32,995 nucleotides of DNA from Acetivibrio cellulolyticus CD2 (GTDB taxonomy: Bacteria > Bacillota > Clostridia > Acetivibrionales > Acetivibrionaceae), in the NCBI RefSeq assembly GCF_000179595.2, contig NZ_JH556653.1, positions 2,093,925 to 2,126,919 on the forward strand, given 5' to 3'. The translations under genes and the position numbers were made by a program. Below the pieces are notes generated by a model that did not search any database, was not told where the DNA came from, and was given only the letters and a program-made list of their open reading frames with translations. This document shows, piece by piece, positions 1,339-29,725 of the stretch. Each line of letters begins with the position of its first letter. Positions within the stretch are counted from its first letter, which is position 1.

Positions 1339-1375
1339 GGTTTTCTCCTTTGTTTGTTTTTCGTGGTTGCTAAAC

Positions 1376-1405
1376 ATTATACAATGGATTTTACCATGAG
1401 TCTCA
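1376..1405 (-). promoter_or_regulatory. Transposase promoter inside the right end of the IS
   Basis: On the minus strand, TTGAGA (complement of 1400-1405) and TATAAT (complement of 1376-1381) are separated by 18 bp. Transcription would start about 30 bp before the MSQINN start codon. This is a sigma-A-like promoter carried by the element itself. Confidence 0.6.
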
Positions 1406-13024: not shown

Positions 13025-13260
13025 AAATATCTCCCTCTTATACTATTATTCTTAAAAAGCTTGTCCTACTGAAGCTTTAAAAAATATATAGTTGGTCTGT
13101 TTATTGTAATGAATTTTTTACTTTGATTACTGCTGCCTCCACCCATATGACGCTAGGTTTATAGTATTAAACATAATTGTTCGTTAGCTCTAATAATTGT
13201 ACATTATTCACATCAAATCTTCAATACATACTAAAAAGGAAGTCGCTGATGGATTTTCTC

Positions 13261-13300
13261 AAAAAAATTATATCAGGTAGGTCAGCCCCACCCGATATAA
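13261..13300 (-). terminator. Terminator of yabG
   Basis: A stem of about 14 bp with one bulge (13268-13281 with 13286-13300) is followed on the minus strand by seven U (A-run 13261-13267). It lies 9 bp past the yabG stop. The remaining 240 bp up to topB (13025-13260) show no gene; a short AAAGCTT inverted repeat (13056-13062/13072-13078) lies in the topB leader. Confidence 0.85.
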
Positions 13301-13308
13301 AATTATCC

Positions 13309-14124
13309 TTATAATCTCTTGAGATGACCTCTTGTTCTGATGCCACCTATACCTTCAACACCCGAAATTGTCATTACTGCTACTTCCTGAGGTGTTACGT
13401 AGCGGCTTTCATCAGTAAGCGCCACTTTTTCACTTACAATTGCAGGATCTAAAGCATTAATGTTTATTCGCCCCGGCGAACTTGCAAAATTGGCGCCTGC
13501 ATTCATAATTCCTTCGAAATATGATTGGCATGCTCCTGCAAATATACATAACCTGTCATAACTACTTTCATATTCTCTGGCCAACTTTACAGACTGAATA
13601 AAGTATTTTGAATTTCTATAGTTTTCAATAGAGTTAAGATTACTTCCTTCCTTCTTTATACCATCATGGCCTGTCAAAACCAGTATATCAGGTCTATGAT
13701 CCTTAAGTGCACGGCTTACCAATCCCGGCTGTTCACTTTCCGCAGCAACTATCCCAATAATATTTATGCCAGCTTCTCTATAGTGATTCTTACATATGTT
13801 TAAAAACTTTTCGCTGGAATCCATCTGAAGTACCTTTCCTGGTCTGTCTCTATACCTATTGAGCCAAAACAACCTATTTGAAAATCCGCGTCTATAGGTA
13901 TTCCTTCTGGCATTAAATATGTCTCTCTGCAAATTCATTTGGACATTTTTGTAATCCTGCTTAATTAAATCATCACCACTTGAATCTGCTTCAATTCTGT
14001 AGAATACTCCCCTCAAAACATATACAGGTTTTATCCCTCCGTTAACGATGTCTATAATTGTAAAATAAATGTCCTCCCCATGGGACTTTCTAGTTACAAT
14101 ATCCCCAACTTTGTAGTCATACAT
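13309..14124 (-). CDS. yabG: Sporulation-specific protease YabG
   Basis: A 271-residue peptidase of family U57, which processes spore coat and cortex proteins during spore maturation. Hallmarks are the N-terminal YDYKVGDIVTRKSHGEDIYF region and the blocks LVLTGHDG (H153) and FAGACQSYFEG (C199). The conserved His and Cys are the proposed catalytic pair. The frame is open to 14151, but the ATG at 14124 is chosen because TAGGAGG lies 6 bp upstream. The presence of yabG shows that the host makes endospores. No clear sigma-K promoter could be fixed in the upstream gap. Confidence 0.92.
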   Translation of the reverse strand: MYDYKVGDIVTRKSHGEDIYFTIIDIVNGGIKPVYVLRGVFYRIEADSSGDDLIKQDYKNVQMNLQRDIFNARRNTYRRGFSNRLFWLNRYRDRPGKVLQMDSSEKFLNICKNHYREAGINIIGIVAAESEQPGLVSRALKDHRPDILVLTGHDGIKKEGSNLNSIENYRNSKYFIQSVKLAREYESSYDRLCIFAGACQSYFEGIMNAGANFASSPGRININALDPAIVSEKVALTDESRYVTPQEVAVMTISGVEGIGGIRTRGHLKRL

Positions 14125-14278
14125 ATTGATCCTCCTAAAAGAAGTATACATATTACATAATATGCAGTACCTCTTATAAGAGGGGCTTGGACCATCTGCC
14201 TGTTTTACATAAAATTTATTTTAGCATAATTAACAATTTAATATTTAGAAATAAGCCCTACTTTATGGATCCATAAAG

Positions 14279-14324
14279 AAACGCCAAGTGCCAGTAATTA
14301 GGCAATTACTGGCACTTGGCGTTT
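14279..14324 (-). terminator. Perfect 21-bp inverted repeat, terminator of the SLH-amidase gene
   Basis: Arms 14279-14299 and 14304-14324 are perfectly complementary around a 4-nt loop. On the minus strand the hairpin is followed by TTTCTTT. It begins 10 bp beyond the stop of the giant surface protein. On the plus strand the right arm is followed by TTTAACTTT, so it could also stop transcripts from the other side. The length of the perfect stem is unusual. Confidence 0.8.
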
Positions 14325-14334
14325 AACTTTACGT

Positions 14335-17300
14335 TTAACTTGGCACTTGCAATTGTTTTACTCCAAGGTATTCCATAATACCATCTGCTATTTCTCTGCC
14401 AATTTCTTCAGTGTTGTCAACAATCCATTGTGCATCCGATTCATTTGTGTGGAAGGAAATTTCAATAAGACCAGTAGTTGCATTTATATATTGTATTTCC
14501 TCGCATGCACTGCCTTCTATAAGACCTCTTTTCCAACCTTCTAATGCATCTTCCGGACGAACCGAGAGGACATGACTTTCAACAGCTTGTGCAAATTCTT
14601 TGCTTGAGATATCATCCTTCTTGTAATAAATCTCCATACCTCTGACATCTTTATTTTTACTAGCATTAGTATGGATTGCAAAATGGACATTTGGTTTTTT
14701 AGAATTGCTGTCAGCAGCTATTTTATCGAGATACTCTTTTTCTGATAGCAACCTCCATGCTTTATCACTTCTATATACTACAATTCCGTTTTCTGACAAT
14801 ATTTCCTCGACCACATCAGCAACATCGCTCATACGGTCATACTCTGTACCATAATCACCAACCCCAATATTATGTATCTGCAATGAAGGACTCAAGTACA
14901 CTGTCAACCCTGATGGGCAAGGTGATGGTTTTAAATTAATCTGTATACAAGGCCTGCCTTTAAGCCATCCGTCATCTGAAGCCGCCATTGCACCTTCATC
15001 GCTTAATGAGAAACTGCACGCTGGAAGAGTATAACCTATTTTTAAAGGTATCACATTTTTAAGTAAATACTGGCTGTATTTTTCTGACAGGTTACCTGTT
15101 CCGTTATTTGTAACCAGTTGATCAAACGTTGTTTCAACACCGTACCACCATCTGAAATTTACTGCATACAAGTCATATTCAATTATATTTGTTATAGCGG
15201 GCACACCTGATACCATTTCGTATGACTGCATTTTTGGTGCCCTCGAATTTAAGTATTGTGCAATCCTTCCTCCACCCTCTTTAAATAAACCTATATCAGG
15301 AATAGTTGAATAATCTGACTGTTCCAAACCGTTTATAAAGTTTCTATAATTTTCTCCGTAATGCGCGTAAGTAGATAATTTAGCTATTGCCTGGCTTTGA
15401 ACTACTCGTTTAGCATCATCTTCAAAATCAATATTTGTTCCGTTCTCTCCATCTGCTGCTTTTATATCAGCATAAGTGTCGAAGCTTCCTGTACCTTCAT
15501 TATAAAGTATTGCTATCAAAAGCCTCTCATCAAACTTAAATTCTCTTATTGGGTAAGTCAGTAGAAGCTCATAAAACTTGTCAACTTTTTTCTGATCCCA
15601 TAATAAAAGCTCAATAATATATTTTCCCATAGCTGCATGATTTGAACTAAATTGGGCTCTTTCACTTTCCAAACTAGATTTGGCACCAGCATTAATTTCG
15701 TTGCTAAAGTATTTATCATACGATGAAATAAGGTAATTAATTAGAGTATCTACTTTACCTTGATTTTCTGCACACCTTATTATACTTTTATTGTTTGAGT
15801 AGTCTTGTACTTTTGCAACCTGAGCATTTAAAGCATTTATCTTGTCTGTAAATATCCTGTTAGGATCACCTGCAGATGCATTTTTGTAGTTAGCTCCAGT
15901 GAGATAAATAAACTTTTGGTCTGCAAAGTTCCATCCGGTATCTTTATTAAAGCTATATTCTCTTCTAACAACAGCACCCTTTTCAGCTCCCACAAAAACT
16001 GCTGCTTTTAAAACAACAGAGTCATATTTTGCTGACTTGATCAAAACCATATCATTATACTCCGATGATAATGCTGTTGGTTCAGATCCATCAAGCGTAT
16101 ACCTTATTACACCACCACTAATTGCTGTTGACATAGACACGCTAATGTCACTATCGTAGGTTCCTGATGGAGAATTAACTTCAGGTACAGCTAAAATATT
16201 TTTTACAATTACACTATAAGCCTGAGTTGCCAAAATAACTTCGTCACTGGCATTCAATCCTATAACTACAATTTTATAGTTTTTATTATTGTCCAGCTCT
16301 TTTGTATCAAGCTTTAGGTTATAATCGTAAGTTCCGGGTATTACCTTAACCAAGTCAGAGCACATTTCACTTGCTCCGGATGCATTCTCCACAGAAATCT
16401 GAAGATTTTGTATAGTATCCAGCTCACCTTTAAGGCTTACGTTTAAATCCAACGTTCCGCTTACAATAGCAGTCTTACTGGCATCAATACTCTTCCATAT
16501 AAGTTTCCCGTCAGCATCCACTAATATTGCATGCTCCGCAGATTCTACCACTGTTCCGTCGCTTAATACAGCTGTTATCTTAAACACATGTCTTCCTGTA
16601 TCAAGTATCTTTACTGATTTCTCAAACCTGGCTACACATGCAGTTCTTCCTTTAAATACCTTTGATCCATGATCCATCACAAACTTGTTTTTACAAGTTG
16701 AATCCCCAAGTATGGTATCAAGAGTAATCCACTTGCCACTGCTTAATCTGAATTGTATTGCAGCATAAGAAATATCCTGACTTCCTTCAGGCAAAAACAT
16801 GTCTGCACTTATCTTGTAGCTTTCAACTGATTTTCCAGACTCAGGGGTAACATTTATGTTTCTAATCTTTACAGTAGTATCCTTTATAACAGGGTTGGTA
16901 AAATAACTCCATGTATTAATTTCATGATCACTAATTGAGAGAGCCAATTCACAATCAAGTTCCACGCTGTCAGGAAGGCCATCCGAATCAGTATCAGTTT
17001 CCAGATCTGCCTTATCAGGAACTTTATTCAATTTAACAACACTCATATCAAAAAGCCTTATCCATGAACCATCCAATGTTACATCTTTGATCTTTGAACT
17101 TAATTCTCTTAAAACCTCTGCAAAGTCAGAATTAATATCTGCAAAAAGTCCATTGGTTTCGGTATAAAGACTATTGTATACGTACTCATAACCAATATCT
17201 GAAACAACTGATGTTATTATACCGTCATTCTTAAGCAGGTCAATTTCCTGCGCCATGGTTGTAACATCTGTAAAGTGTGTGCCATCTTTGTAGTCTGCAT

Positions 17301-19902
17301 CAGTCAGCAATACTATGAACTTTTTAGCATTTGGCCTAAAGCCCATTGTTCTAGCTTCTTCTAATGCATCTACAGCTGATTCAGGCACGTCTCCACCACC
17401 GTATACTAAAATTTCGTCAACTCTTTTCTTAAGCTCATTTACATCAGTGAACCAGCCGCAATTTATAGTTGTTTCACCAACTTCATATATATCCTTATAA
17501 TCTATCAAACCGAACCTAATTTCAACATTTTTACTTAGTTCTTCTGCAAATTCGTTAACATTTGTAATAACATTTTCAATTTTATCGCCCATTGAACCAG
17601 TGGAATCAATGGCAAATATGATGTCTGCCTTTCCTTTGTCAAGAATTCCGCCGCTCTCATCATCACACATAAGGCTCTCAATAAGTTTACAAATATCCAC
17701 GATACCACAAATACTAAAGTAGGGAGTTGAAGCACTTATTGTACCACTTGTAATGTCATATGCAGTATCAAGGATAGTAAGCTTCCCTTCATAAATAGTA
17801 AATACCTTAAGATTTTCAAGCTCATGTGAAGCCAAAGTATCTTTAGATATGCTGAATGTAAGATTTGCAGAGATTATATTTGCTTCGCAGGTAATTTCAA
17901 CAGGATTTCCGATAATGCCTTCAATATTAGACAACTCAGGCATATACACAACTTCCTGCACTGATAAATTCTTTTCTGCATTTAGAGCACCTTCAATGCT
18001 TATAAATTCAAGAGTATCTGAAGTGGCAGATATTCCATCATCGAATTGATCCCTATATACATTTTCTGTTACTGTAACCAAACTATCCAAAACGCCTGGA
18101 GAAAATGAAAACATATTTAAAGGGCTTGAACCCAATTCAACTTCTTCACCTTCATAGAGGCCATCACCATCGGAATCCGGATTGAGCGGATCTGCTGAAT
18201 ATTCCTTTATTTCTGCCCCATCTGCCAAACCGTCTTCATCTGAATCCATAACCAAAGGTGCTGTGCCAGCACTATATTCCTCCTTATTGGTTAGTCCATC
18301 TCCATCAAGATCCATCTCTGCATCACGATATGGATTATCCAAGGTAAACACAGCAGTAGGGTTTGTACCAAGTTCAACTACTTCATAATAATCACTTAAT
18401 CCATCCCCATCGGTATCACTGTTGAATGGACTAATAAAAAACGCTCCATCGACTTTCTCCCCTGGTTTTCCTACAACATCAACTTTTGTAACCCCACCAT
18501 CTTTTGTTACTTTACGTGGACACAATTCTGACCAGTCACTAAAACCATCTCCATCAGTATCAGCACTGAGTGGATTTGTAAGGTACTCTTCAATTTCCTC
18601 ATAATCTGAAAGACCATCTTCATCGGTATCTGCAATTAATCTGGAAGTTCCATATATATCTTCTTCAGCATCAAGAAGTCCATCATTGTCTGAATCAATA
18701 TTGACACTTACCAACTTTGTACCAGTATGTGTTTTACCCTCCCTGTCAGTTATAACAATTTCTATTTCATTCCTATAGCTTGGAAGTTTCATATTTAATA
18801 ACTCAAATTCATAAACCCCGGTCTTACTATTAATTGTCTTATAGTCTGTAATGCTATATGTATCGGAGTTATAGCTTCCTGCATCGTCAGTATAGCTGAT
18901 TATGCAGTCTATTGATTTTATTGACGGGACATCCATTGTTCTGCCTTTAATATAAACACTATCAGAACCTGTCAGCGTTTCAGGTGCAATAAAATGGATG
19001 CTTCCTTCAGTATTTGCTGTTGGTGTATTGGTTGGTGTATTGGTTGGTGTACATGTCGGTGTATTTGTCATTATATTTGTTGGTGTGTTTGTTAGTGTAT
19101 GCGTTGATGTGTTTGTTGGTGTACATGTTGGTGTATTTGTTGGTGTACGTGTCGTTGTATGTGTTGGGGTATGTATATTTACTGGTGTAGATGTAGGTGT
19201 TGGCGTTTCATGAGACACATCCGCTGTAGCTGGGCCTCCTGGGATCTCTTCACTATCTACAACAATACCTAAAAATGCAAGACTTTTTCCAAGTAAACAA
19301 AAAGCTTCTGCACGGGTTGCAGGGTTAAATGGTCTGAATGTGTTATCAGGGTATCCGCTTATTATATTATTTTTCTTGCAAGCCATAACCTGCTTATAAA
19401 ACCAGTCATTATCCTTCACATCAGGAAAAGAATTTTCGTAATCTTGTGATTGAGTATCAAACTTACATAATTTTGATACAAGTTGAGCTATCTCCCCCCT
19501 TGAAATATTACTATTTGGCTTGAATGTGCCGTCAGGATAGCCCCCAATAAGTTCGTTGCTAGATGCAATATCAATAATATTTTTATACCATGCATCACTT
19601 TTCACATCTGAAAAGTCTTTAATCTTTTCACTTGCCGCTTCAGCCTTAAGAATTTTCACTATTACAGCAACAACTTCTGCTCTTGTAATATTCCTGTCGG
19701 GTTGAATTTTAATTCCATCGTTCGAAGCTATACCTTTTATATAACCAAGATTTATCATGTTAGTTATCTCGTTTTTTGCCCAATGCCCGGTTATATCACT
19801 ATAATCAGCACTTTGAGTTGTTTTCGAAAAGCAAACGAAAGATTGCATACATAATAAAATTATTAGCATGACAGAAATGCTGACTCTCACTATTCTTTTC
19901 AT
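14335..19902 (-). CDS. Giant surface protein: SLH x3, TSP3-like repeats, vWA, chitobiase-type domain, Amidase_3
   Basis: An 1855-residue secreted protein. In order it has: a signal peptide (1-26); three SLH domains (about 34-80, 95-140, 160-205) that bind secondary cell-wall polymer; a Thr/Pro linker (about 228-297); an Ig-like segment; a run of calcium-type DxDxDG motifs (about 400-600); a vWA domain (about 758-935) with the MIDAS variant DSTGS; one more calcium motif near 978; a chitobiase-type domain (about 1240-1310, YTLDGSEPT); an all-helical region (about 1330-1640); and a C-terminal Amidase_3 domain (about 1660-1850). The amidase keeps the zinc ligands H1677, E1687, H1744 and the catalytic E1814, so it probably cleaves the MurNAc-L-Ala bond. 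GGGGAG precedes the ATG. It follows the MoxR-DUF58-transglutaminase genes by 151 bp on the same strand. The domain calls are by motif. Confidence 0.88.
19012..19210 (-). repeat. Low-complexity Thr-Pro linker repeats
   Basis: About 200 bp of imperfect tandem repeats of a TTGGTGTA-like unit (plus strand) encode the TPTNTPT linker between the SLH domains and the rest of the surface protein. Such linkers are common in cellulosomal and S-layer proteins and are prone to slippage. Two Cys (TPTCTPTN, twice) interrupt the pattern. Confidence 0.8.
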
Positions 19903-20053
19903 AACACTCTCCCCTAAAAAATTATTACATATTCTGTATCTTTAATATGTTCAACAACAATGATATATCATGTTTAACAAATCGTCAATTTCCTAATTAC
20001 CCACTTAATGCCAACTCTGAAATTTTCGAAACCTCTGGCAGGTCAGCTATCAA

Positions 20054-22420
20054 CTAAAGCATCCAAGCTTTCAGCTTCCCAACCTCTTTTTTAACATATT
20101 TTCTTACTTCGTTGTATTTTTCCATAGCATTTAATACAGCCTCCTGATCGGGATTTAAGCCACCGTATTTAGACTTGTTAAAACAGTCGGCAAATTCCGA
20201 CATGTTTACTCCACTGGCTTCAAGCACTCTGACAGCATAATTTGATGGTGTCTCATATTTCTTTATCTCTAGGTCAATCTTCCTTAATAAATATGATATT
20301 CTTGCAAATATCATCGAAATCGCCATACTTCCATCTGCATTTAAAACACTCTTTTTCCACATACTTCTACGAACACGGTTAAATAACCAAATCAATAGAA
20401 AGAGTAAGAAAATAGTATATGGGATAAATAACAGTTTAACCCAAAGCGGCATAACTTTTATAAAATTCCCAATTGATGATGCAATATAGCCGATTGTATT
20501 GAATAAACCTTCAAAGAATGCGCTGAATCTGTTGCCTGAGTTTCCACTCCCAACCGTTGGTTCAAAAACCATCCAGCCATAACCTGCAATATAAACCTCC
20601 GGAAAAGCGTGGGCATGTTTTTCTCTGATAAGATAATTCCCTGTTTCCGGGTCCCATTCATTTGCTACAAAACCTTCCACATATCTTGCCGGTATACCTG
20701 CTGCCCTTGCCAGAATAACCATTGCAGATGCGAAGTGCATACATATACCTTTTTTACTTTCAAAAATAAAGAAATCATTATAATCCATACCTTTAGATGG
20801 ACTTGGGGGTGTTAAATCATACTCAAACCCTGTAGTATCAAAAAAGTCTACTATAGCCTGGGCTTTATCATAATCGCTTGTCGCCCCCTCTGTTATGTTG
20901 TCTGCCAAATCATATATTCTCTGAGGCAAATCTTCCGGCAGGTCTGTATAATTATCATAAGCTGAATCCATTTCAGAATTGGCTTCTTCTATTACATTTT
21001 TCGTTTCAGAATCTATTACTAATTGACCACTGGATAAATTCTTATCCAATGCTCCATCGTTGTTATTACTAACTTTATATTTTTTAAGATCAAATATGCC
21101 CGTAACAAAATCCCTGTTTACTTCCCTAAGCAGATTGAATTCCAAAGATGAGTGAGACAAATTCTGAGAAAAATAATCAATAGTATATGATTCATTTAAA
21201 TCAGGAATTTGTTCGTTTTCTATATAACACTCAGCATGTCCATTTATATATACAATTGGATTATTCCACAATCCAAAACTACATACTCCCGGTGGGTTTA
21301 GTAATGATTGCATTGGTACTCCCTTTGTTTGGATATAAGCTTGCTTTATCTCCTGCTGTTTTGGAGTACCCTCTAAATATTTATCCACTTTAGCATACTC
21401 GGATGGAAGCAAACTATTTTTTTTCATTTGCTGCAGTAGCTCTGCCAATACATAAAACTTAGTGTAGCTGTTCTTAATGTCTTTAATGTCTCTCTTATTA
21501 TCAAGTTCCTTATTCCCTTTAATCCATCTATTGTCTACATATTTATCCCAGCTCTGAACTCTAAAATAGAGGGGTTCCTTCGCTTGTACTTCAAAAAGTA
21601 CGTTATCTCCTAATGGAGGTGTACTTGAACCTAAAATGCTTTGATTTTTAATTGACATTGTATTAAATATTTTAGCTAAGTTCTCAACCTCTATATTTTG
21701 ACCGTTTGTTTGGGCCAGATTTTGTATTGTCTCATTTAAAACTTGTTTTATATATGCAACTTTAGGTACTGTTTCAGGTTTTGGAGCAGTTAGTGATAAA
21801 GTAAGAACTATAGCAATAAAAATGGTCGCTGACATAATATACCACGGGTTATTTATATGATAATCCTTATCTAAATTTACTGTTTTCTTTACTGTACGCT
21901 CCAAATACAATAAAAAGAAAAATATCAGAAAAAGCACAAACGGTAATGTAATTCCACGATCCGTTTTAGCTGATTGCAACATGAAAGGTATAATTCCAAT
22001 AAGTAAAAGAACCGGTACTCTATACCTTATATTGGTAAAATAATAAACTGTTGAAGTTAGCCCGTAACATGCAATCAAAACAGTCGCGAACCAGAAAGCC
22101 GGTATGAGTTCAACACTTTCGGGTTTTGTTACAACAATCCATATAAGATATGACAAATTCGATTCACCGGAAAAAAGAATAATTACCATAATACTCATAA
22201 AGTATACAACTGACCCAAGAACAAACACTATACCTCCTGCTGTCCCCTGCTTTTTTGCGTATATACAGCAGATAAAGAGAATAGTATTAACCAGGGAAAT
22301 CACTAGTAGTATATCAACTATAGGCATTCCCAAGAATGAAGTCATTGCCCAGTAAGTTAATATAATAGAAAATATAAGTGATAATTTTTGATTGTTCAAT
22401 TCCCTAAATAGCGCTTTCAT
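20054..22420 (-). CDS. TgpA-like membrane protein with transglutaminase-like domain
   Basis: A 788-residue membrane protein with about six to seven N-terminal helices (residues 10-230), an extracytoplasmic region with a transglutaminase/protease-like fold (about 510-640), one helix (about 660-690) and a cytoplasmic DUF4129-like tail. The catalytic Cys is C560 in KKGICMHFASA, with His in KHAHAFPEVY. The third position is Glu rather than Asp (FEPTVG). In the usual arrangement such proteins are encoded with MoxR and DUF58 partners, as here. The role may be peptide-bond cleavage or crosslinking in the envelope; the substrate is unknown. GGATGGGATG precedes the start. It lies 81 bp after the DUF58 stop. 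Confidence 0.88.
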   Translation of the reverse strand: MKALFRELNNQKLSLIFSIILTYWAMTSFLGMPIVDILLVISLVNTILFICCIYAKKQGTAGGIVFVLGSVVYFMSIMVIILFSGESNLSYLIWIVVTKPESVELIPAFWFATVLIACYGLTSTVYYFTNIRYRVPVLLLIGIIPFMLQSAKTDRGITLPFVLFLIFFFLLYLERTVKKTVNLDKDYHINNPWYIMSATIFIAIVLTLSLTAPKPETVPKVAYIKQVLNETIQNLAQTNGQNIEVENLAKIFNTMSIKNQSILGSSTPPLGDNVLFEVQAKEPLYFRVQSWDKYVDNRWIKGNKELDNKRDIKDIKNSYTKFYVLAELLQQMKKNSLLPSEYAKVDKYLEGTPKQQEIKQAYIQTKGVPMQSLLNPPGVCSFGLWNNPIVYINGHAECYIENEQIPDLNESYTIDYFSQNLSHSSLEFNLLREVNRDFVTGIFDLKKYKVSNNNDGALDKNLSSGQLVIDSETKNVIEEANSEMDSAYDNYTDLPEDLPQRIYDLADNITEGATSDYDKAQAIVDFFDTTGFEYDLTPPSPSKGMDYNDFFIFESKKGICMHFASAMVILARAAGIPARYVEGFVANEWDPETGNYLIREKHAHAFPEVYIAGYGWMVFEPTVGSGNSGNRFSAFFEGLFNTIGYIASSIGNFIKVMPLWVKLLFIPYTIFLLFLLIWLFNRVRRSMWKKSVLNADGSMAISMIFARISYLLRKIDLEIKKYETPSNYAVRVLEASGVNMSEFADCFNKSKYGGLNPDQEAVLNAMEKYNEVRKYVKKEVGKLKAWML

Positions 22421-22501
22421 TACATCCCATCCCCAAAAATAATAATGTCATTCCAACCATGTGAAAAATCCGGAGTAATATTTCAGCTATTCCTTAACCG
22501 C

Positions 22502-23833
22502 TTATGAGAAGGCCTCAGTAATATCATCATCTGTGCCTAAAACCCATGCATTACCCTCTCTATGAGCAAACACCTTCTCTGCTTTAGCGGTAACCATACT
22601 TTTCGAAACGGAACTCTTTACCGAAACGATATCAATAGTTATGCCATAATCAGAAAAGCAATCAATTGCCTTTTGCAAATTATTATCAAGATGCCCGGTA
22701 AAAACTGTTGCCTCGCCACCTCGAGCATACCGGCTTCTGCCTTCATGTTCCATAATATCAGTTAAAGGCAACCGTTTTGATGAGTCTGCAGTAATATCGC
22801 TCGTGAACTTATAAGATGCTAATCTGTGCTGAATCTCATTAATACTCTTTCCATCGGTTATACCATACTTATTCCAGTTACCATCCTCATATAGCCATAA
22901 CTCAACTTCTCTTCCTGTTTTAATTGATATATTTGCTACTGCAAGTATTACTTCCAACGTCTTTTCTTCCAGTATCAATACTTCATCTTCCGTATTGCCA
23001 TTATTCTCATTATTAGATTTTGTTAAGGAGTTAAACAGCAATTGATAAATCGTTTTACTGTCTCGTTTTCTTTGAAGCATTTCCATACATGGATCTAAAA
23101 CAAGACGTTTTTTTGCTACTCCTCTCCCCTCATCCTTCCTAACCATAAGTGTTTCACTTCTGGCAGAAAGTTTCCAGTGTACCTTATGAAGTGGATCGCC
23201 CGCCATGTACTCCCTGAACTCATAGCCCGGTTCTCCACTCCAATTGTAAAACCCTGTTGTTGAAGTGCCTGAATCATCCTGCTGCGGTGTATCAGATGAA
23301 TCCAATAAAATTTTACTGGTTGGCTTTATGCTTACAAGCCTAGGCAAAACAGTTACTTCTCCAGTGTACCGACTCTCCTCAGTATTTTTTAATATTGAAA
23401 CTTTAAAGAGATTTAAGTAATCTTTAAGCCAAACGCCACTTACACCTATTTCTCCTATACCCCTGCTTTTTGCAGTGTATTCCTTAGTTATAATTTTAGT
23501 TTGAAATGGTCCCAATGAAACTATCTCATTAGCTGAACCCGATATACTAAAATTTACAGCCTGACAAAACCTAATATTAACAAATGGAATAGGCATAAAA
23601 GACTTGTTTTCAATACACACACTGACTCTTATAATGCCGCATTTTTCAACCTCTGACGACGGAGCATCAATAGATACAGAAAGTCTGTCCCTAAACGGGA
23701 AAATCAGCAGAACTGACACTATTGGAGAAAAGATAAACATGTACACCATTACCATGCTTGTTTCTCCACCGATAAAGTAAGAATACAAATAAATAAAAAT
23801 TGTCATTAAGAAAAGCAAACCAAAATTTCTCAT
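22502..23833 (-). CDS. DUF58 (vWA-like) membrane protein
   Basis: A 443-residue protein with two N-terminal membrane helices (about residues 5-45), a beta-rich extracytoplasmic or linker region, and the DUF58 core. The family signature is clear near residues 215-245: REYMAGDPLHKVHWKLSARS. DUF58 proteins have a vWA-related fold and are thought to be clients or adaptors of MoxR AAA+ ATPases. The frame is open to 23881, but the ATG at 23833 (MRNFGLLF) is chosen because AAAGGA lies 8 bp upstream and the hydrophobic helix then starts near the N-terminus. It lies 81 bp from both neighbours in the same operon. Confidence 0.85.
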   Translation of the reverse strand: MRNFGLLFLMTIFIYLYSYFIGGETSMVMVYMFIFSPIVSVLLIFPFRDRLSVSIDAPSSEVEKCGIIRVSVCIENKSFMPIPFVNIRFCQAVNFSISGSANEIVSLGPFQTKIITKEYTAKSRGIGEIGVSGVWLKDYLNLFKVSILKNTEESRYTGEVTVLPRLVSIKPTSKILLDSSDTPQQDDSGTSTTGFYNWSGEPGYEFREYMAGDPLHKVHWKLSARSETLMVRKDEGRGVAKKRLVLDPCMEMLQRKRDSKTIYQLLFNSLTKSNNENNGNTEDEVLILEEKTLEVILAVANISIKTGREVELWLYEDGNWNKYGITDGKSINEIQHRLASYKFTSDITADSSKRLPLTDIMEHEGRSRYARGGEATVFTGHLDNNLQKAIDCFSDYGITIDIVSVKSSVSKSMVTAKAEKVFAHREGNAWVLGTDDDITEAFS

Positions 23834-23914
23834 AAAAGTTTTCCTTTGCTTATATACAGAATACAAACAACTATAGTGCATTTTACATTTTGAAATTAGT
23901 AATGTTAATAAGCA

Positions 23915-24844
23915 CTAAAATGTTGGGACCTTAACTTTCACAATTGCTTCATGTACCACATCATCTGCGGTAATGTTTTTCATTTTTGCACCAGAATTCA
24001 TGATTATCCTGTGGGCTAGAACTGGAGCTGCCATTTTTTGAATATCATCAGGAATTACATATTCCCTTCCTCTAATAAAAGCCCAAGCTTTTGACGCTCT
24101 GTATAAATTAAGACTTCCCCTCGGACTTCCCCCAAGTACTACGTCAGGACTTTTCCTTGTAGCCTCAATAATATCTACAATATATGTTTTCAAACAATCT
24201 TCAATATTGATCTTTTTAACCTGATTTTGAAGCTCAATCAGGTCACTAATATTAGCAACAGGTGCAAGTTCAGATAAAGGATTATCGCTTCCAAACCTGT
24301 CAATTATCAACTTCTCTTCACTCTTTTCCGGATAGCCTATAGATAGCTTTAAAAAGAATCTGTCCATTTGAGCTTCAGGTAGAGGATATGTCCCAAAACA
24401 CTCTACAGGGTTTTGTGTTGCAAGTACCATAAATGGCCTAGGCAATTGATAGGTTTTTCCATCTACTGTAACCTGATTCTCTTCCATTATTTCCAGAAGG
24501 CTTGATTGAGTTTTGGGGGAAGTCCTGTTTATTTCATCCGCTAAAAGAAAATTGCACATTGCTGCGCCCTTCCTATATTCAAATTCACGAGTGGCTGGAT
24601 TAAACATAGAAAAACCCATTATATCCGACGGCATTAAATCCGGAGTAAACTGTACCCTGTTAAATATACCGTTAACCGAACGTGCAAGCGTAGCTACAAT
24701 CTGTGTTTTGCCAACCCCCGGTACATCTTCAATCAATACATGTCCATCACTTAATAGTGCTACCAGAATATGTTCCAACACAGACCTTTTACCTACGATA
24801 ACTTTTTCCATATTTCCTATAAGTGCCTCAACCATATTATTCAT
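23915..24844 (-). CDS. MoxR-family AAA+ ATPase
   Basis: A 309-residue AAA+ ATPase of the MoxR type that would act as a chaperone-like remodeller in the cytosol, probably on the DUF58/vWA partner. Visible motifs are Walker A (DVPGVGKTQIV, about residues 40-50), the MoxR hallmark FNRVQFTPDLMPSDIMGF, Walker B (LLADEINRTSPKTQ), sensor 1 (LATQNPVECFGTYPLPEAQMDRF) and an arginine-rich C-terminal lid (GGSPRGSLNLYRASKAWAF). A TTG directly precedes the ATG at 24844; GAGGTG 8 bp upstream favours the ATG. It is the first gene of the co-directional MoxR-DUF58-transglutaminase-surface protein series. Confidence 0.92.
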   Translation of the reverse strand: MNNMVEALIGNMEKVIVGKRSVLEHILVALLSDGHVLIEDVPGVGKTQIVATLARSVNGIFNRVQFTPDLMPSDIMGFSMFNPATREFEYRKGAAMCNFLLADEINRTSPKTQSSLLEIMEENQVTVDGKTYQLPRPFMVLATQNPVECFGTYPLPEAQMDRFFLKLSIGYPEKSEEKLIIDRFGSDNPLSELAPVANISDLIELQNQVKKINIEDCLKTYIVDIIEATRKSPDVVLGGSPRGSLNLYRASKAWAFIRGREYVIPDDIQKMAAPVLAHRIIMNSGAKMKNITADDVVHEAIVKVKVPTF

Positions 24845-25021
24845 CAAATGTACACCTCAGAAATTATTTTATTTTTAAACCTAAACTGCAAACTATGAAA
24901 AACTATATAACACAAAACTTAAGACTTGATACACCAATGATATTAAATGTTTTTGAGCACATAATAACATCTAGAATTCTTATAACTCGAAAAATATCGC
25001 ATTTTGTTAGTATTTACATAT

Positions 25022-25165: not shown

Positions 25166-27313
25166 TTATGACATTCCAAGCAACTTCTTCCTTAAAAGTC
25201 CAAAGTCAATTGAATTAACTGATCCATTACCATCCATATCTCCAGCTGCTAACTGTGCAGACGTAAAGTCAGTTTTCATAGCTAATAAGTACTGCCTCAT
25301 TAAACCAAAGTCGATTGAATTAACAGCCCCACTGAGGTCCATATCGCCCCTAAGAGTTGATGGAGTTGATGGAGTAGGTGTTGACGGTGCTATAGTTTTA
25401 GTCGGAGTAGCCCCTTCTGTAGGAGCTGTTCCATCTGGCTCTGTACCGAATATTAACTTATCTCCATCATAAACTGTAATCTTCTTGGTTTTAACAACGG
25501 TGCTAGCTGCTAATCCATCATATGAGTAATCGTTCTTAGGATCCCAGTAGCTTGTTGCTTCAGGAGCAGAAATACGGAACTGAACTTCACCAGAAAATGC
25601 AGACTGTCCACCTGGGTATATATTTGTTCCATCTTCGAACTTAACATTTACATAATAAATATCACCAGAGTATTGTTTAAGTTCCGAAATAGTTACAGGG
25701 AATTCCGAAATATTTACCTTTACTTTCAAATCACTCAATTTAGCACCTGCTGCAAATACCTCTGACAGATCAACGTAATAATTGAAAGACAAATCTTTTA
25801 TCACTCTTGCCGGCCAACCTGATTGGTTATTTAATAATACCTTTAGTTCAGTATAGGTAGGTCCTGAAGAGTTAATTGACGCCTCTGCGAAAAACTCATC
25901 TTCCTTTGTTTCAGGCTGAGGGAAGTTAGCAACAGGTGTTCCGCCGTATATTGAGCACATCTTCGCAAGCATTCCTGTATACCCTGCATTATAATCACAA
26001 GCAACTTCATTAGCAGTATAATCCTGAACAGTATCAGTGTACCCATCGCTCGAGCTAGGTCCTCCAACAAGAGCTCCATAGAGTATATGCCTATGGTATG
26101 GAGGTGTATTTATGTTGTCAGCCCATGAACCTTGAGATGTTCTATGATGGGGATGTACCGGAGGATTAGTACCAAAGCCACAAACATAACTTCTTTTGCT
26201 TGGATTTGCTCCTAAGCAATAATCTATATGAGTTTTAGCAAAACCCTCATATCTGGCCTTAAGAGTTGAGTCATCAATAGAATCGGAATATACACTTGCT
26301 AAAAATGCAGTTGTTGTAGCATATCTTAAACATCCCCATGTATCAAGCCATGCAAGTCCACCTGGAGTGTATTTTATTTTTGCACCATTGTATCCTACTG
26401 TCCAATAATCAAGGTGCATCTTAATGTAATTATGATATTCTTCCTTACCTGTAATCCTTGAAAGGAGCAGTATTGCACCGGGTTTACAATCATCCCAGCA
26501 GTGACACCATTGATACTCTATATCAGTGGAGGCTCCCTGTCTCTCCAGGTTTGGTAAATATGATTCTGCCTTTTTAATATAGCTCTCGTCACCAGTTGCT
26601 ATGTATAACCATGTTGAAGCCCACAAAAGTTCATCCCAGAATCCGCTCCATGATTTATAGTAGTCGTTTGCTGCTGTATAAGTGCTGTCACTTCTTACAG
26701 AATCTCCAAGGCTAAACAGGCTCTTTGCATGTGTAAGATATGTACTGTCATTTAATACTATTGACCCGACAGCAAGAGCTGCTGCCATTTGCCCTGTTAT
26801 GCAAGACGCATTACAAGTATAGGATGGACGAGCCATCTTCTTTTCAATAACTTCAACAGGCCCCCACCAGTTATGGTCTTTTGCTCCATCTCCAACCTGA
26901 TATACTACGCTGGTCCCTTTGTCACAATCTACAAGATAGTCAAGTACAAACTTTAAGTTGTTTTTCATTGTATCCATCTGTCCTGATTTCTCAAACCCTT
27001 CCGGGTACTCATACATCGCCCATCCAAGCATTGCTGCTGAATATGACATTGGAAGATTGAACTTAACATGATCTCCGGCATCATACCAGCCACCTAAAAC
27101 AGCATCATTCATTGTTGCATCTCCACGCCATTCAACACGGTTCCAATCAGGAAGCGGTCCCGCCTGCTGAGCTTCATAGAAATAAAGTGATTTTTGAAGA
27201 GCTTCTGCATAATTATAAGATGATGAATCCGCAGAAACTGTTGCCGACGGAAGCACCAATGAAAGTGACAAAGCTGCCGACAGTACCAAAGATATAATTT
27301 TCTTCACGTACAA
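25166..27313 (-). CDS. Cellulosomal GH9 endoglucanase (GH9-CBM3c-dockerin)
   Basis: A 715-residue secreted cellulase. It has a signal peptide (1-28, ending VSA), a GH9 catalytic domain (about 32-460), a CBM3c-type module (about 478-620), a Pro/Thr linker (about 633-655) and a type I dockerin with two calcium repeats (about 656-714). Catalytic residues are in place: the Asp pair D78/D81 in WYDAGDHVKF and the acid E436 in ANEVACDYNAG. Both dockerin repeats carry Ser-Ile at the cohesin-recognition positions 10-11. The fused CBM3c usually makes such enzymes processive endoglucanases. It works outside the cell, docked on a scaffoldin. GGAGGAG precedes the ATG. It is a tandem paralogue of the next gene, 264 bp upstream. 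Confidence 0.95.
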   Translation of the reverse strand: MYVKKIISLVLSAALSLSLVLPSATVSADSSSYNYAEALQKSLYFYEAQQAGPLPDWNRVEWRGDATMNDAVLGGWYDAGDHVKFNLPMSYSAAMLGWAMYEYPEGFEKSGQMDTMKNNLKFVLDYLVDCDKGTSVVYQVGDGAKDHNWWGPVEVIEKKMARPSYTCNASCITGQMAAALAVGSIVLNDSTYLTHAKSLFSLGDSVRSDSTYTAANDYYKSWSGFWDELLWASTWLYIATGDESYIKKAESYLPNLERQGASTDIEYQWCHCWDDCKPGAILLLSRITGKEEYHNYIKMHLDYWTVGYNGAKIKYTPGGLAWLDTWGCLRYATTTAFLASVYSDSIDDSTLKARYEGFAKTHIDYCLGANPSKRSYVCGFGTNPPVHPHHRTSQGSWADNINTPPYHRHILYGALVGGPSSSDGYTDTVQDYTANEVACDYNAGYTGMLAKMCSIYGGTPVANFPQPETKEDEFFAEASINSSGPTYTELKVLLNNQSGWPARVIKDLSFNYYVDLSEVFAAGAKLSDLKVKVNISEFPVTISELKQYSGDIYYVNVKFEDGTNIYPGGQSAFSGEVQFRISAPEATSYWDPKNDYSYDGLAASTVVKTKKITVYDGDKLIFGTEPDGTAPTEGATPTKTIAPSTPTPSTPSTLRGDMDLSGAVNSIDFGLMRQYLLAMKTDFTSAQLAAGDMDGNGSVNSIDFGLLRKKLLGMS

Positions 27314-27381
27314 CTCCTCCTTAATAAAAATTTATAAATTATTTTAAGACTAATACCCCGTACCTTGTCCATATTTTTTCT

Positions 27382-27399
27382 ACGGAATTATAGCCCTAA
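27382..27399 (-). promoter_or_regulatory. 5' element shared by both GH9 genes, copy 1
   Basis: ACGGAATTATAGCCCTAA (plus strand) lies about 70-85 bp upstream of the GH9 start and matches ACGGAATAGAGCCCTAA at 29801-29817 before the paralogue. In this copy the minus strand contains TATAAT (complement of 27386-27391), which could be a -10 box. Whether this is a promoter, an operator or just duplication residue is not decided. Confidence 0.4.
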
Positions 27400-27430
27400 T
27401 TATCATTATATAATGGAAATTAAACCTAAT

Positions 27431-27540
27431 TATATTATATTACATAACAGAGTGACTTTACAAGAATACAACGTCTTATTTTGTATACTTCCTAATGCTA
27501 TAAAAATAGCCATATAGACCTTTAAAGTCCATACGGCTAT
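27431..27540. repeat. 3' flank block shared by the two GH9 genes, copy 2
   Basis: Counterpart of 25022-25128, in the same order and orientation relative to the cellulase gene, including the final terminator. Confidence 0.75.
27502..27540 (-). terminator. Terminator of the upstream GH9 gene
   Basis: A 10-bp stem with one G-T pair (27506-27515 with 27531-27540) is followed by U residues on the minus strand (A-run 27502-27506). It is homologous to the terminator at 25092-25128. Confidence 0.8.
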
Positions 27541-27577
27541 TAGTACTAAATAATATAAACCTTAGTTAAAACAACTA

Positions 27578-29725
27578 TTATAGCATTCCAAGTAAAAACT
27601 TCCTTAAATATCCCAAGTCAATTGAAGTAATTTTTCCATCACCATCATAATCTCCAGCTTTTAACTGTATAGGCGTAATTTCAGGCATTAAACCTAATAA
27701 GTACTTTCTCATTGTACCTAAGTCAATTGAATTAACAGATCCATTGAGGTCCATATCACCCTTAAGAACTGTTGAACTATTTGTTGGAGTAGGTGTTGGT
27801 GGTGCTATAGTTTTAGTTGGAGTAGGCCCTTCTGTAACAGTTGTTCCATCTGGCTCTATACCGAATATCAATGTACTTCCATCATAAACTGTAATCTTCT
27901 TTGTCTTAACAACACTGCTTGTTCCTAAGCCATCATATGAGTAGTCATTCTTAGCATCCCAATAACTAGTTGATGTAGGAGCAGAAATACGGAACTGAAC
28001 TTCTCCCTGGAATGGTGACTGTCCACCTGGATATATGTTTGTTCCATCTTCGAACTTAACTTTTACATAATAAATATTACCAGAATACTGTTTAATCTCT
28101 GAACAAGTAACAGGGAATTCTGCAGTACCTGCTTTTACTGTCAAATCACTTGCTTTAGCACCTGCTGCCAAAACTTCTGTGAGGTCCATATAATAGTTAA
28201 ATGATAAATCCTTTATAGTTCTTGCAGGCCAACCTGATTGGTTAGTCATTTGTGCCTTTATTTCAGTGTAATTAGGTCCAGCTGAATTTACACCTGCCTC
28301 TACAAAGAACTCATCTTCCTTCTTTTCAGGTTGTGGGAAGTTAGCTAGAGGTGTTCCACCGTTAACTGAACACATCTTTGCAAGCAATGCTGTATATCCT
28401 GCATTATAGTCAGTTGCAACTTCATTTGCAGTATAGTCTTGAACAGTATCAGCATATGCATCACCGGAGCTAGGTCCTCCAACAAGAGCTCCATAGAGTA
28501 TATGTCTATGGTATGGAGGTGTATTCATGTTGTCTGCCCATGAACCTTGCGCAGTTCTATGGTGAGGATGTACTGGAGGGTTTGTACCAAAACCACAAAC
28601 ATAACTTCTGTTACTTGGATTTGATCCTAAACAATAATCCATCTGAGTTTTAGCAAAACTTTCGTATCTAGTCTTAAGTGTTGAATCATCAGTATAATCA
28701 GCATATACACTTGCAAGGAACCCTGCAGTTGTCGCATATCTTAAACATCCCCATGTATCATTCCAAGCAAGTCCACCTGGGGTATATTTTATTTTTTCAC
28801 CATTGTATCCAACAGTCCACCAGTCAAGATGCATCTGTACAAAATCTTTATATTCCTGCTTGCCTGTAAGTTTTGCAAGCATAACCATTGCACCATAGTG
28901 AACATCATCCCAACAGTGACTCCACTTAAACTCTATGTTAGTAGTTTGTCCCTGCCTGTTTAGTTTAGGTACATATGCTTCTGCTTTTGAAAGATAACTT
29001 TCATCTTTAGTTGCTACATAAAGCCAAGTTGAAGCCCACAAAAGCTCATCATAGAAACCGCTCCATGAATTGTAGTATCCACTTGCTGCAGTATAGGAGC
29101 TATCACTGCGGGTAGAATCCGCAAGGCTAAATAAACTCTTTGCATGTGTAAGATATGTACTATCATTTAAAACTATTGACCCAATAGCAAGAGCTGCTGC
29201 CATCTCACCTACTACACAGGATCCAGTACCTGTATATGATGGACGTGTCATCTTCTTTTCAATAACTTCTACAGGTCCCCACCATGTATGGTCTTTTCCG
29301 CCATCTCCAACCTGATAAACTACACTGCTTCCTTTGTCACATGCTACAAGATAGTCAAGTACGAATTTCAAGTTGTTTTTCGCAGCTTGCATCTGTCCGG
29401 ATTTTTCATAACCTTCTGGATACTCATACATTGACCATCCAATCATTGCTGCTGAATATGCCATTGGGAGATTAAACTTTACATGGTCTCCTGCATCATA
29501 CCAGCCACCTTTTACATCGTCACCCATTGTTGAATCTCCACGCCATTCAACGCGGTTCCAGTCAGGAAGTGGACCTGCCTGCTGAGCTTCATAGAAAAAG
29601 AATGATTTTTGAAGTGCTTCTGCATAATTGTAAGTTGAGGCTGCAGAAACTGTCGCCGTTGGAAGCACCACTGAAAGTGATAAAGCTGCCGTCAGTACTA
29701 AAGACATAATTTTCTTCACGTACAA
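27578..29725 (-). CDS. Cellulosomal GH9 endoglucanase (GH9-CBM3c-dockerin), second copy
   Basis: A 715-residue paralogue of the next gene, with the same architecture and length: signal peptide (1-28, ending VSA), GH9 domain (about 31-460), CBM3c-type module (about 477-618), Pro/Thr linker and type I dockerin (about 655-714). Catalytic residues are D77/D80 in WYDAGDHVKF and E435 in ANEVATDYNAG. The dockerin repeats again show Ser-Ile at positions 10-11. The GH9 and CBM3c parts resemble the paralogue along their whole length, while the linker and dockerin have diverged more. GGAGGA precedes the ATG. Its own terminator follows, so the two genes are probably separate transcription units. Fine substrate preference cannot be told from sequence. 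Confidence 0.95.
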   Translation of the reverse strand: MYVKKIMSLVLTAALSLSVVLPTATVSAASTYNYAEALQKSFFFYEAQQAGPLPDWNRVEWRGDSTMGDDVKGGWYDAGDHVKFNLPMAYSAAMIGWSMYEYPEGYEKSGQMQAAKNNLKFVLDYLVACDKGSSVVYQVGDGGKDHTWWGPVEVIEKKMTRPSYTGTGSCVVGEMAAALAIGSIVLNDSTYLTHAKSLFSLADSTRSDSSYTAASGYYNSWSGFYDELLWASTWLYVATKDESYLSKAEAYVPKLNRQGQTTNIEFKWSHCWDDVHYGAMVMLAKLTGKQEYKDFVQMHLDWWTVGYNGEKIKYTPGGLAWNDTWGCLRYATTAGFLASVYADYTDDSTLKTRYESFAKTQMDYCLGSNPSNRSYVCGFGTNPPVHPHHRTAQGSWADNMNTPPYHRHILYGALVGGPSSGDAYADTVQDYTANEVATDYNAGYTALLAKMCSVNGGTPLANFPQPEKKEDEFFVEAGVNSAGPNYTEIKAQMTNQSGWPARTIKDLSFNYYMDLTEVLAAGAKASDLTVKAGTAEFPVTCSEIKQYSGNIYYVKVKFEDGTNIYPGGQSPFQGEVQFRISAPTSTSYWDAKNDYSYDGLGTSSVVKTKKITVYDGSTLIFGIEPDGTTVTEGPTPTKTIAPPTPTPTNSSTVLKGDMDLNGSVNSIDLGTMRKYLLGLMPEITPIQLKAGDYDGDGKITSIDLGYLRKFLLGML

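What the first reader, a model, noticed from the sequence alone, without database searches (positions are those of the whole stretch)
14335..19902. One protein joins S-layer anchoring, calcium repeats, a vWA domain and a cell-wall amidase
Seen: SLH x3, a Thr/Pro linker, TSP3-like DxDxDG repeats, vWA with a MIDAS-like DSTGS, a chitobiase-type domain and Amidase_3 with the ligands H1677, E1687, H1744 and catalytic E1814. SLH anchors and amidases occur together elsewhere, but a vWA domain and a long calcium-repeat stalk between them are unusual to my knowledge. It could be a tethered, calcium- or force-gated wall hydrolase, for example for cell separation, spore release or S-layer/cellulosome patch remodelling.
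Basis: partly seen in the sequence, partly recalled or inferred. Interest (0 to 1): 0.72.

Follow-up and report, generated by a model that had tools for sequence, protein, structure and literature searches.

The report
Stalked surface enzyme with swappable wall-cutters
A bacterium of the Acetivibrio family carries on its surface a long anchored protein that joins a calcium-binding stalk and an adhesion-like domain to what look like two different cell-wall-cutting enzymes, one of them an undescribed kind that elsewhere sits in genes laid out like bacteria-against-bacteria weapons.

Summary
ORF 14335-19902(-), 1855 aa, carries SLH x3, a Thr/Pro linker, seven TSP3 repeats plus one after the vWA, a vWA with a complete MIDAS, a chitobiase-C module and Amidase_3, all above Pfam cut-offs. 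Correction: H1677 is His in only 4 of 9 amidase relatives; E1687, H1744 and E1814 are invariant. Its invariant Glu1469 aligns with the catalytic Glu of SLT and PF13702 profiles; Foldseek gave no support. This rare 'EGTGSF' domain sits behind the same vWA in three relatives (SLH and TSP3 seen in two), with NlpC-type tips; related chassis carry Lipase_3. Elsewhere it occurs in effector-like loci (YukD/WXG100; baseplate-spike/DUF4280; a paralogue in this genome), in five followed by a homologous lipoprotein, a candidate immunity protein that the tethered genes lack. Most likely: a surface-tethered dual peptidoglycan hydrolase acting on the cell's own wall, sharing a domain with antibacterial-type effectors. 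Calcium or force gating is untested. New variant of a known kind.

The parts
14335..19902 (-). ORF, 1855 aa: SLH-TSP3-vWA-EGTGSF-Amidase_3 surface protein
19807..19902 (-). putative signal peptide, residues 1-32 (Lys/Arg, then a hydrophobic run); read by eye, no predictor used
   Evidence: sequence
19267..19803 (-). three SLH repeats, residues ~34-212
   Evidence: 119 bits, 3 stretches; matches S-layer protein Sap 3pyw
19003..19227 (-). Thr/Pro linker, residues 226-300
18118..18696 (-). seven TSP3-type DxDxDG repeats (calcium binding inferred from the family), residues 403-595
17077..17634 (-). vWA domain, residues 757-942; MIDAS D766, T768, S770, E841, D868
16957..16995 (-). eighth TSP3 repeat after the vWA, residues 970-982; a related repeat in the same place in L055, L059, L060, L061
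15955..16170 (-). chitobiase-C-terminal / Fn3-associated module, residues 1245-1316
15055..15618 (-). EGTGSF domain (not in Pfam), residues ~1429-1616, putative lysozyme-superfamily glycosidase
15496..15498 (-). codon of invariant Glu1469, putative catalytic acid
14356..14904 (-). Amidase_3 domain, residues 1667-1849; invariant E1687, H1744, E1814; first zinc ligand uncertain
14280..14323 (-). intrinsic-terminator-like hairpin, 20-pair stem, directly after the gene
19960..19988 (-). promoter-like site TTGACG-17-TATCAT upstream of the gene (weak evidence: 58 such sites found in the scan against a shuffle mean of 48.6, sd 7.1)

Best explanation
It is a secreted protein held on the cell surface by three SLH domains. 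A calcium-stiffened TSP3 stalk and a MIDAS-type vWA domain present two C-terminal peptidoglycan hydrolases: an Amidase_3 that would cut the stem peptide from the glycan, and a new lysozyme-superfamily-like domain (EGTGSF) that would cut the glycan strand. The vWA most likely binds a ligand on the cell surface or in the matrix and holds the enzymes at a chosen place, such as the septum or cell-cell contacts. The cell most likely uses it on its own wall, for separation or remodelling. The EGTGSF domain appears to have been recruited from, or shared with, secreted antibacterial-type effectors, and the tips behind this vWA are exchanged between lineages. Shown by homology: anchor, stalk, MIDAS, amidase, shared vWA chassis, tip exchange. 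Inferred: glycosidase activity, where it acts, what the vWA binds, calcium binding.
For: All named domains exceed the Pfam cut-offs. Amidase E1687, H1744 and E1814 are invariant in 9 of 9 rows, and solved amidases match (CwlV 1jwq 5.1e-5; with the profile 1xov 1e-16 and cwp6 5j72 1.2e-15). The MIDAS residues are kept in 9 of 9 vWAs aligned: the window, five chassis relatives and three other vWA proteins (rows chosen with a D.TGSM search, which the 8 relatives tried all passed). EGTGSF: 19 invariant columns in 13 rows including E1469; hhalign to SLT (18 rows) score 32.3, E 2.9e-4, 0 of 200 column shuffles as high; to PF13702 (5 rows, 3 of them identical) score 22.3 against a null maximum of 21.9 in 60. 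In this genome two paralogues share their first ~250 residues and a LysM and carry M23 + EGTGSF or an NlpC-like stretch + PlyCA_N, so EGTGSF occupies the slot of a known glycosidase domain. SLH-bound hydrolases acting in cell separation are known: BslO (passages of PMC7759979); SLH is listed with type-3 amidases in a review table (passages of PMC6403190). The tethered genes have no adjacent homologue of the candidate immunity lipoprotein, and G004, G012 and G013 have none anywhere at E <= 0.001, as expected for an enzyme used on self.
Against: Foldseek finds no PDB or viral match at E <= 0.001 for the family model (pLDDT 78, pTM 0.79; first row L094, not the window), lysozyme-like or other. 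The SLT similarity covers only 24 columns around the Glu, and I chose SLT because the motif resembled it; PlyCA_N and glucosaminidase profiles did not match above shuffles. The first amidase zinc ligand is unclear. There is no expression, localisation or activity data. Lipase_3 tips behind the same kind of chassis do not suit an own-wall role.
Confidence: 0.55

Rival explanations
1. Contact-dependent weapon: the vWA grips a neighbouring cell and the stalk puts the two lysins, or in relatives a peptidase or a lipase, on the neighbour's envelope. The SLH chassis would be a third delivery route for an effector domain otherwise sent out by type VII-like or contractile systems.
For: The EGTGSF domain outside the chassis lies in a YukD/WXG100 locus (L095), in a locus with a Phage_GPD/Phage_base_V protein and DUF4280 (L090) and near a DUF4280 protein in L094, and in this genome's L058 paralogue. 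In 5 loci (L058, L090-L093) the next gene, 18-27 bp away, is a homologous lipoprotein-like protein (L058 to Paenibacillus 38-44% identity), as expected of effector-immunity pairs. Tips vary: Amidase_3, NlpC/P60, Lipase_3.
Against: The SLH end is bound to the producer's own wall and no linked immunity gene is seen: yabG follows the window gene; of the 3 relatives with the tethered domain only G004 is followed by a lipoprotein-like gene, 103 bp away and unrelated by BLAST. G004, G012 and G013 lack the lipoprotein genome-wide at E <= 0.001. The tethered domains form their own group (98/96, long branches).
Confidence: 0.22
2. Feeding or biofilm enzyme: a surface-displayed lysin that digests dead cells' walls in plant-litter communities, the vWA and chitobiase-type module binding matrix or glycan, in parallel to the surface cellulosome.
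For: Cellulosome-type neighbours (two GH9-CBM3-dockerin genes); lipase-tipped relatives.
Against: No dockerin or cohesin in the protein; nothing ties expression to biomass.
Confidence: 0.13
3. The C-terminal domains are no longer enzymes; the protein is an adhesin that binds peptidoglycan.
For: Uncertain first zinc ligand; the window EGTGSF copy is divergent (28-37% identity over the core to the other 12 rows, end branch 2.69).
Against: E1469, E1687, H1744 and E1814 all kept; intact 1855-codon frame; stand-alone amidases with the same motif in other genera, and related phage proteins some of which are annotated as endolysin or amidase.
Confidence: 0.1

Closest known systems
SLH-domain murein hydrolases such as Bacillus anthracis BslO (passages of PMC7759979)
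   Same: SLH anchor plus peptidoglycan hydrolase at the cell surface
   Different: BslO is described there as an N-acetylglucosaminidase; here amidase plus a new domain, with a TSP3 stalk and vWA between anchor and enzymes
Amidase_3 enzymes (CwlV 1jwq, Ply 1xov, Cwp6 5j72; phrog_435 endolysins)
   Same: Family, Glu and His zinc ligands, catalytic Glu (roles of these residues recalled; phrog_435 E 2.3e-24)
   Different: SPSxQxxN motif in place of the Gly-His first-ligand motif; carried on an SLH-vWA chassis
TSP3-vWA surface proteins such as Myxococcus CglD (recalled as a gliding adhesin with vWA; only a search listing seen)
   Same: TSP3 repeats; vWA recalled for CglD
   Different: no enzymes (recalled); the NCBIfam hit covers the TSP3 stretch (490-588) only and scores 49.4 against a cut-off of 400
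SLT/GH23 lytic transglycosylases and PF13702 lysozyme-like domains
   Same: IDPxLLxAIIxxE-type motif, Glu in register with the catalytic Glu (catalytic role recalled)
   Different: no Pfam hit, no fold match; EGTGSF insert; rest of the domain not aligned
Effector-immunity modules of type VII-like and contractile systems (recalled kind)
   Same: same EGTGSF domain; homologous lipoprotein-like gene adjacent in 5 loci
   Different: signal-like N-terminus and SLH in place of a delivery domain; no linked immunity candidate

Membership tests
SLH-anchored autolysin | three SLH repeats and export signal | tested here: met
   3 SLH stretches; export signal read by eye only
SLH-anchored autolysin | peptidoglycan hydrolase domain on the same chain | tested here: met
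   Amidase_3 58.4 vs 27 bits; activity not testable
SLH-anchored autolysin | septal location and chaining phenotype on loss | not testable with these tools
   bench work needed
Amidase_3 (PF01520) | Pfam score over gathering cut-off | tested here: met
Amidase_3 (PF01520) | second and third zinc ligands (Glu, His) and catalytic Glu | tested here: met
   E1687, H1744, E1814 invariant in 9 of 9, (roles recalled)
Amidase_3 (PF01520) | first zinc ligand His | tested here: inconclusive
   H1677 position is His in 4 of 9; His of 1xov aligned to L1674
vWA with MIDAS | DxS/TxS, loop-2 Glu/Asp, third-loop Asp | tested here: met
   D766, T768, S770, E841, D868; 9 of 9 rows, (rows taken by a D.TGSM search, which all 8 relatives tried passed)
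Lysozyme superfamily (SLT/GH23, PF13702) | catalytic Glu at the end of the DPxLLxAI helix | tested here: met
   0 of 200 shuffles for SLT, 0 of 60 for PF13702 by a narrow margin; 24 columns only
Lysozyme superfamily (SLT/GH23, PF13702) | lysozyme-like fold | tested here: inconclusive
   model pLDDT 78 but no Foldseek match at E <= 0.001; pdb_via not available
Lysozyme superfamily (SLT/GH23, PF13702) | Pfam family match | tested here: not met
Effector of a type VII-like or contractile system | delivery domain (WXG-like helices or spike association) | tested here: not met
   signal-like N-terminus then SLH
Effector of a type VII-like or contractile system | adjacent immunity gene | tested here: not met
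   terminator then yabG; own genome's only match to the lipoprotein profile is the copy beside L058

The most novel reading that the evidence does not exclude
One cell-surface chassis (SLH-TSP3-vWA) serves as a stalk with exchangeable enzyme tips, and its EGTGSF domain is a new class of antibacterial glycosidase with its own lipoprotein immunity protein that has moved between type VII-like, contractile-spike and S-layer display. That would make S-layer display a third, contact-dependent delivery route.
Probability: 0.2. Interest if true: 0.75.

Novelty: new variant of a known kind. Interest (0 to 1): 0.5.

Why it matters
SLH autolysins are known, but three searches of an open-access library for SLH together with vWA and amidase or hydrolase gave nothing on this architecture (the one paper listed mentions vWA only for pilins, passages). 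The EGTGSF domain, absent from the Pfam copy used, comes with a candidate immunity lipoprotein and so gives a directly testable enzyme-inhibitor pair. The tethered copies without that partner give a natural comparison of a domain in weapon-like and wall-bound settings.

Tried and rejected
EGTGSF as a member of a Pfam family: no hit. PHROGs gave none for the window domain and three weak hits for the L056 domain, best phrog_4627, 1.7e-4, function unknown. EGTGSF as a PlyCA_N relative: the neighbour protein in the same position carries PlyCA_N, but the profiles do not match above shuffles (71 of 200, 22 of 60); the SLT-PlyCA comparison meant as positive control was also insensitive (19 of 200). 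Glucosaminidase (2 rows): 7 of 60; vWA 3 of 60 and amidase 30 of 60 as unrelated controls. EGTGSF in phages, plasmids or viral contigs: no match for the L094 domain in phages or plasmids, none in three viral-contig scans. First structure prediction, window domain alone, failed (pLDDT 34). Sporulation role through yabG: terminator between, neighbourhood not shared with the relatives compared. Operon with the upstream MoxR/DUF58-like/transglutaminase genes: 151 bp gap with a promoter-like site, not decided. Frame breaks of the chassis gene in L055 (three frames) and L057 (four frames): in L057 the next gene, whole in L056, is in three pieces too, so draft errors are likely there; L055 undecided. 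L061 holds its copy in two frames. The part of the G013 locus before residue ~708 reads N (withheld), so SLH and TSP3 were not seen there.

Rows dropped: 18 of 25 SLT loci entered the final profile (the rest did not fit the motif search); earlier SLT profiles (wrong-frame rows; 4 rows, P 0.0014) were replaced. The window ORF itself is not listed in searches of its own genome. L059 and L061 are 99.6% identical, so the vWA rows are not all independent.
Full report
Observation. The window lies in a 6.16 Mb genome of the same family as G012; G012's contig C183 and the A. straminisolvens contig of L089 have the same length, 73436, so the family is that of Acetivibrio straminisolvens. That the species is A. 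cellulolyticus is a guess from size and content. The ORF 14335-19902(-) is intact, 1855 aa. The eight DxDxDG repeats are far above chance.

The amidase. In nine rows, window included, E1687, H1744 and E1814 are invariant, but the H1677 position is not (His in 4 of 9). Q1675 and N1678 are invariant and may form the first ligand; this is inference. The subfamily is found in frames of 180-248 aa, at 41-46% identity, in 9 of the 57 other genomes of the order (10 places, E <= 1e-8), and more distantly in phages: 9 records with the window domain, 39 with the L063 protein, several annotated as endolysin or amidase. On the chassis it was seen only in the window.

The overlooked domain. Residues ~1429-1616 match nothing in Pfam. 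An alignment search over 58 genomes of the order found it in 4: G004, G012, G013 and a second copy in the own genome. A sample of 245 genomes of the class gave only that second copy (E <= 1e-5), as did a sample of 398 genomes of the phylum (E <= 1e-6). A scan of genome contigs gave 9 loci: A. straminisolvens, five Paenibacillus, three from Oscillospiraceae MAGs, two of them from one isolate. Nineteen columns are invariant over 13 rows, among them E1469 in the stretch that reads IDPRLLLAIIIQEGTGSFNT in the majority consensus and [20 protein letters not shown] in the window. Profile comparison puts this Glu on the Glu of SLT (score 32.3, null maximum 24.5 in 200 shuffles) and of PF13702 (22.3, null maximum 21.9 in 60). 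The model of the family (L094 as first row, pLDDT 78, pTM 0.79) matches nothing in PDB or BFVD at E <= 0.001, so the fold is unproven.

Chassis and tips. Homology to the window protein covers TSP3 and vWA up to about residue 1009 in G001, G004, G008 and G010; G012 has SLH and TSP3 in one frame and vWA onward in others; in G013 it is seen from residue ~708 on, the part before being withheld. SLH is detected in the window, G004, G012, G008 and G010, not in the G001 ORF as read. After the vWA, G004 carries CHB_HEX_C, EGTGSF, PG_binding_1 and NlpC/P60; G013 and G012 carry EGTGSF, PG_binding_1 and a DCSG-containing stretch that resembles the NlpC-like part of the L058 neighbour by eye and that Pfam does not call; G001 and G008 carry Lipase_3. 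The MIDAS residues are kept in nine vWAs aligned, six on the chassis and three in other vWA proteins. Pieces of broken genes were compared separately.

Effector-like settings. In this genome, L058 8266-10488(-) has an N-terminal stretch without a family over its cut-off, then PG_binding_1, M23, LysM and EGTGSF; its neighbour 13092-15467(-), 51% identical over 580 aligned columns, has an NlpC-like stretch (below cut-off), LysM and PlyCA_N, and a weak WXG100 hit (0.023). In L095 the EGTGSF gene lies in a locus with YukD (27 bits, at the cut-off) and three WXG100 proteins over the cut-off. In L090 it lies 3 kb behind a Phage_GPD/Phage_base_V/NlpC protein and 6 kb behind a DUF4280 protein; in L094 1.2 kb behind a DUF4280 protein. 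L091-L093 were not scanned for these. The next gene is a lipoprotein-like protein in L058 and L090-L093 (gaps 18-27 bp), homologous among them (L058 to Paenibacillus 38-44%, E 5e-46 to 8e-50). L094 and L096 are followed by other lipoprotein-like genes not matching by BLAST, L095 by another gene with a like N-terminus, and in L097 the contig ends. So the homologous lipoprotein follows in 5 of 9 loci. Lipoprotein calls are by eye. The tree separates tethered from secreted copies (98/96); the window, L055 and L095 have long branches. The own-genome secreted copy is 76% identical over the core to that of Paenibacillus sp. A3, which suggests transfer.

Immunity candidate against tethering. A profile of that lipoprotein finds a strong match in G000 (1.8e-114, the L058 gene) and none at E <= 0.001 in G004, G012 and G013, the three other genomes with tethered EGTGSF; 20 of 58 genomes have some match, most of them weak and partial. 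G012 is 87% complete, so its absence is less sure. This favours an own-wall use of the tethered form, or a form that the immunity protein would not see.

Literature. BslO as SLH N-acetylglucosaminidase in cell separation: passages of PMC7759979. SLH among binding domains of type-3 amidases: passages of PMC6403190. 37 SLH proteins in A. cellulolyticus, main text without von Willebrand or amidase: passages of PMC3413522. PMC5817068 mentions von Willebrand once, for pilins (passages). Searches for SLH with vWA and amidase or hydrolase gave nothing on this architecture.

Verdict.

Noticed in passing
L058 8266-10488(-) and 13092-15467(-) (own genome, contig C8): Two paralogous genes with near-identical helical-looking N-termini (weak WXG100 hit in one), each with two different wall-cutting domains (M23 + EGTGSF; NlpC-like + PlyCA_N); a lipoprotein-like gene follows each.
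   Followed up: partly
L090-L094, around 9.2-12 kb: Paenibacillus clusters with the EGTGSF gene and a lipoprotein-like gene behind it; Phage_GPD/base_V spike and DUF4280 shown in L090, DUF4280 in L094.
   Followed up: partly
window 20054-24847(-): MoxR-type ATPase, DUF58-like (below cut-off) and transglutaminase-core genes in a row upstream of the vWA protein; link not tested.
   Followed up: no
window 25166-29725(-): Two tandem GH9-CBM3-dockerin cellulosome enzymes of equal length (715 aa).
   Followed up: no
window 13309-14151(-): yabG sporulation protease downstream, behind a 20-pair terminator-like hairpin.
   Followed up: partly
window 283-1377(-): Transposase-like gene with HTH_38 and rve domains.
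   Followed up: no
L059 7722-11810(-), L060 4664-9340(+): The TSP3-vWA chassis ends in a Lipase_3 domain instead of wall hydrolases (SLH detected in L060, not in the L059 ORF).
   Followed up: partly
L059 7722-11810(-) and L061 1165-5816(-): Genes 99.6-100% identical in two genomes given as different genera (G001, G010): recent transfer or a mis-binned contig.
   Followed up: no
L063-L070: Stand-alone amidases with SPSxQxxN in place of the usual Gly-His motif; seven of eight have a further C-terminal stretch, in four with SPxYWxxNAxxGxxVxGE.
   Followed up: no
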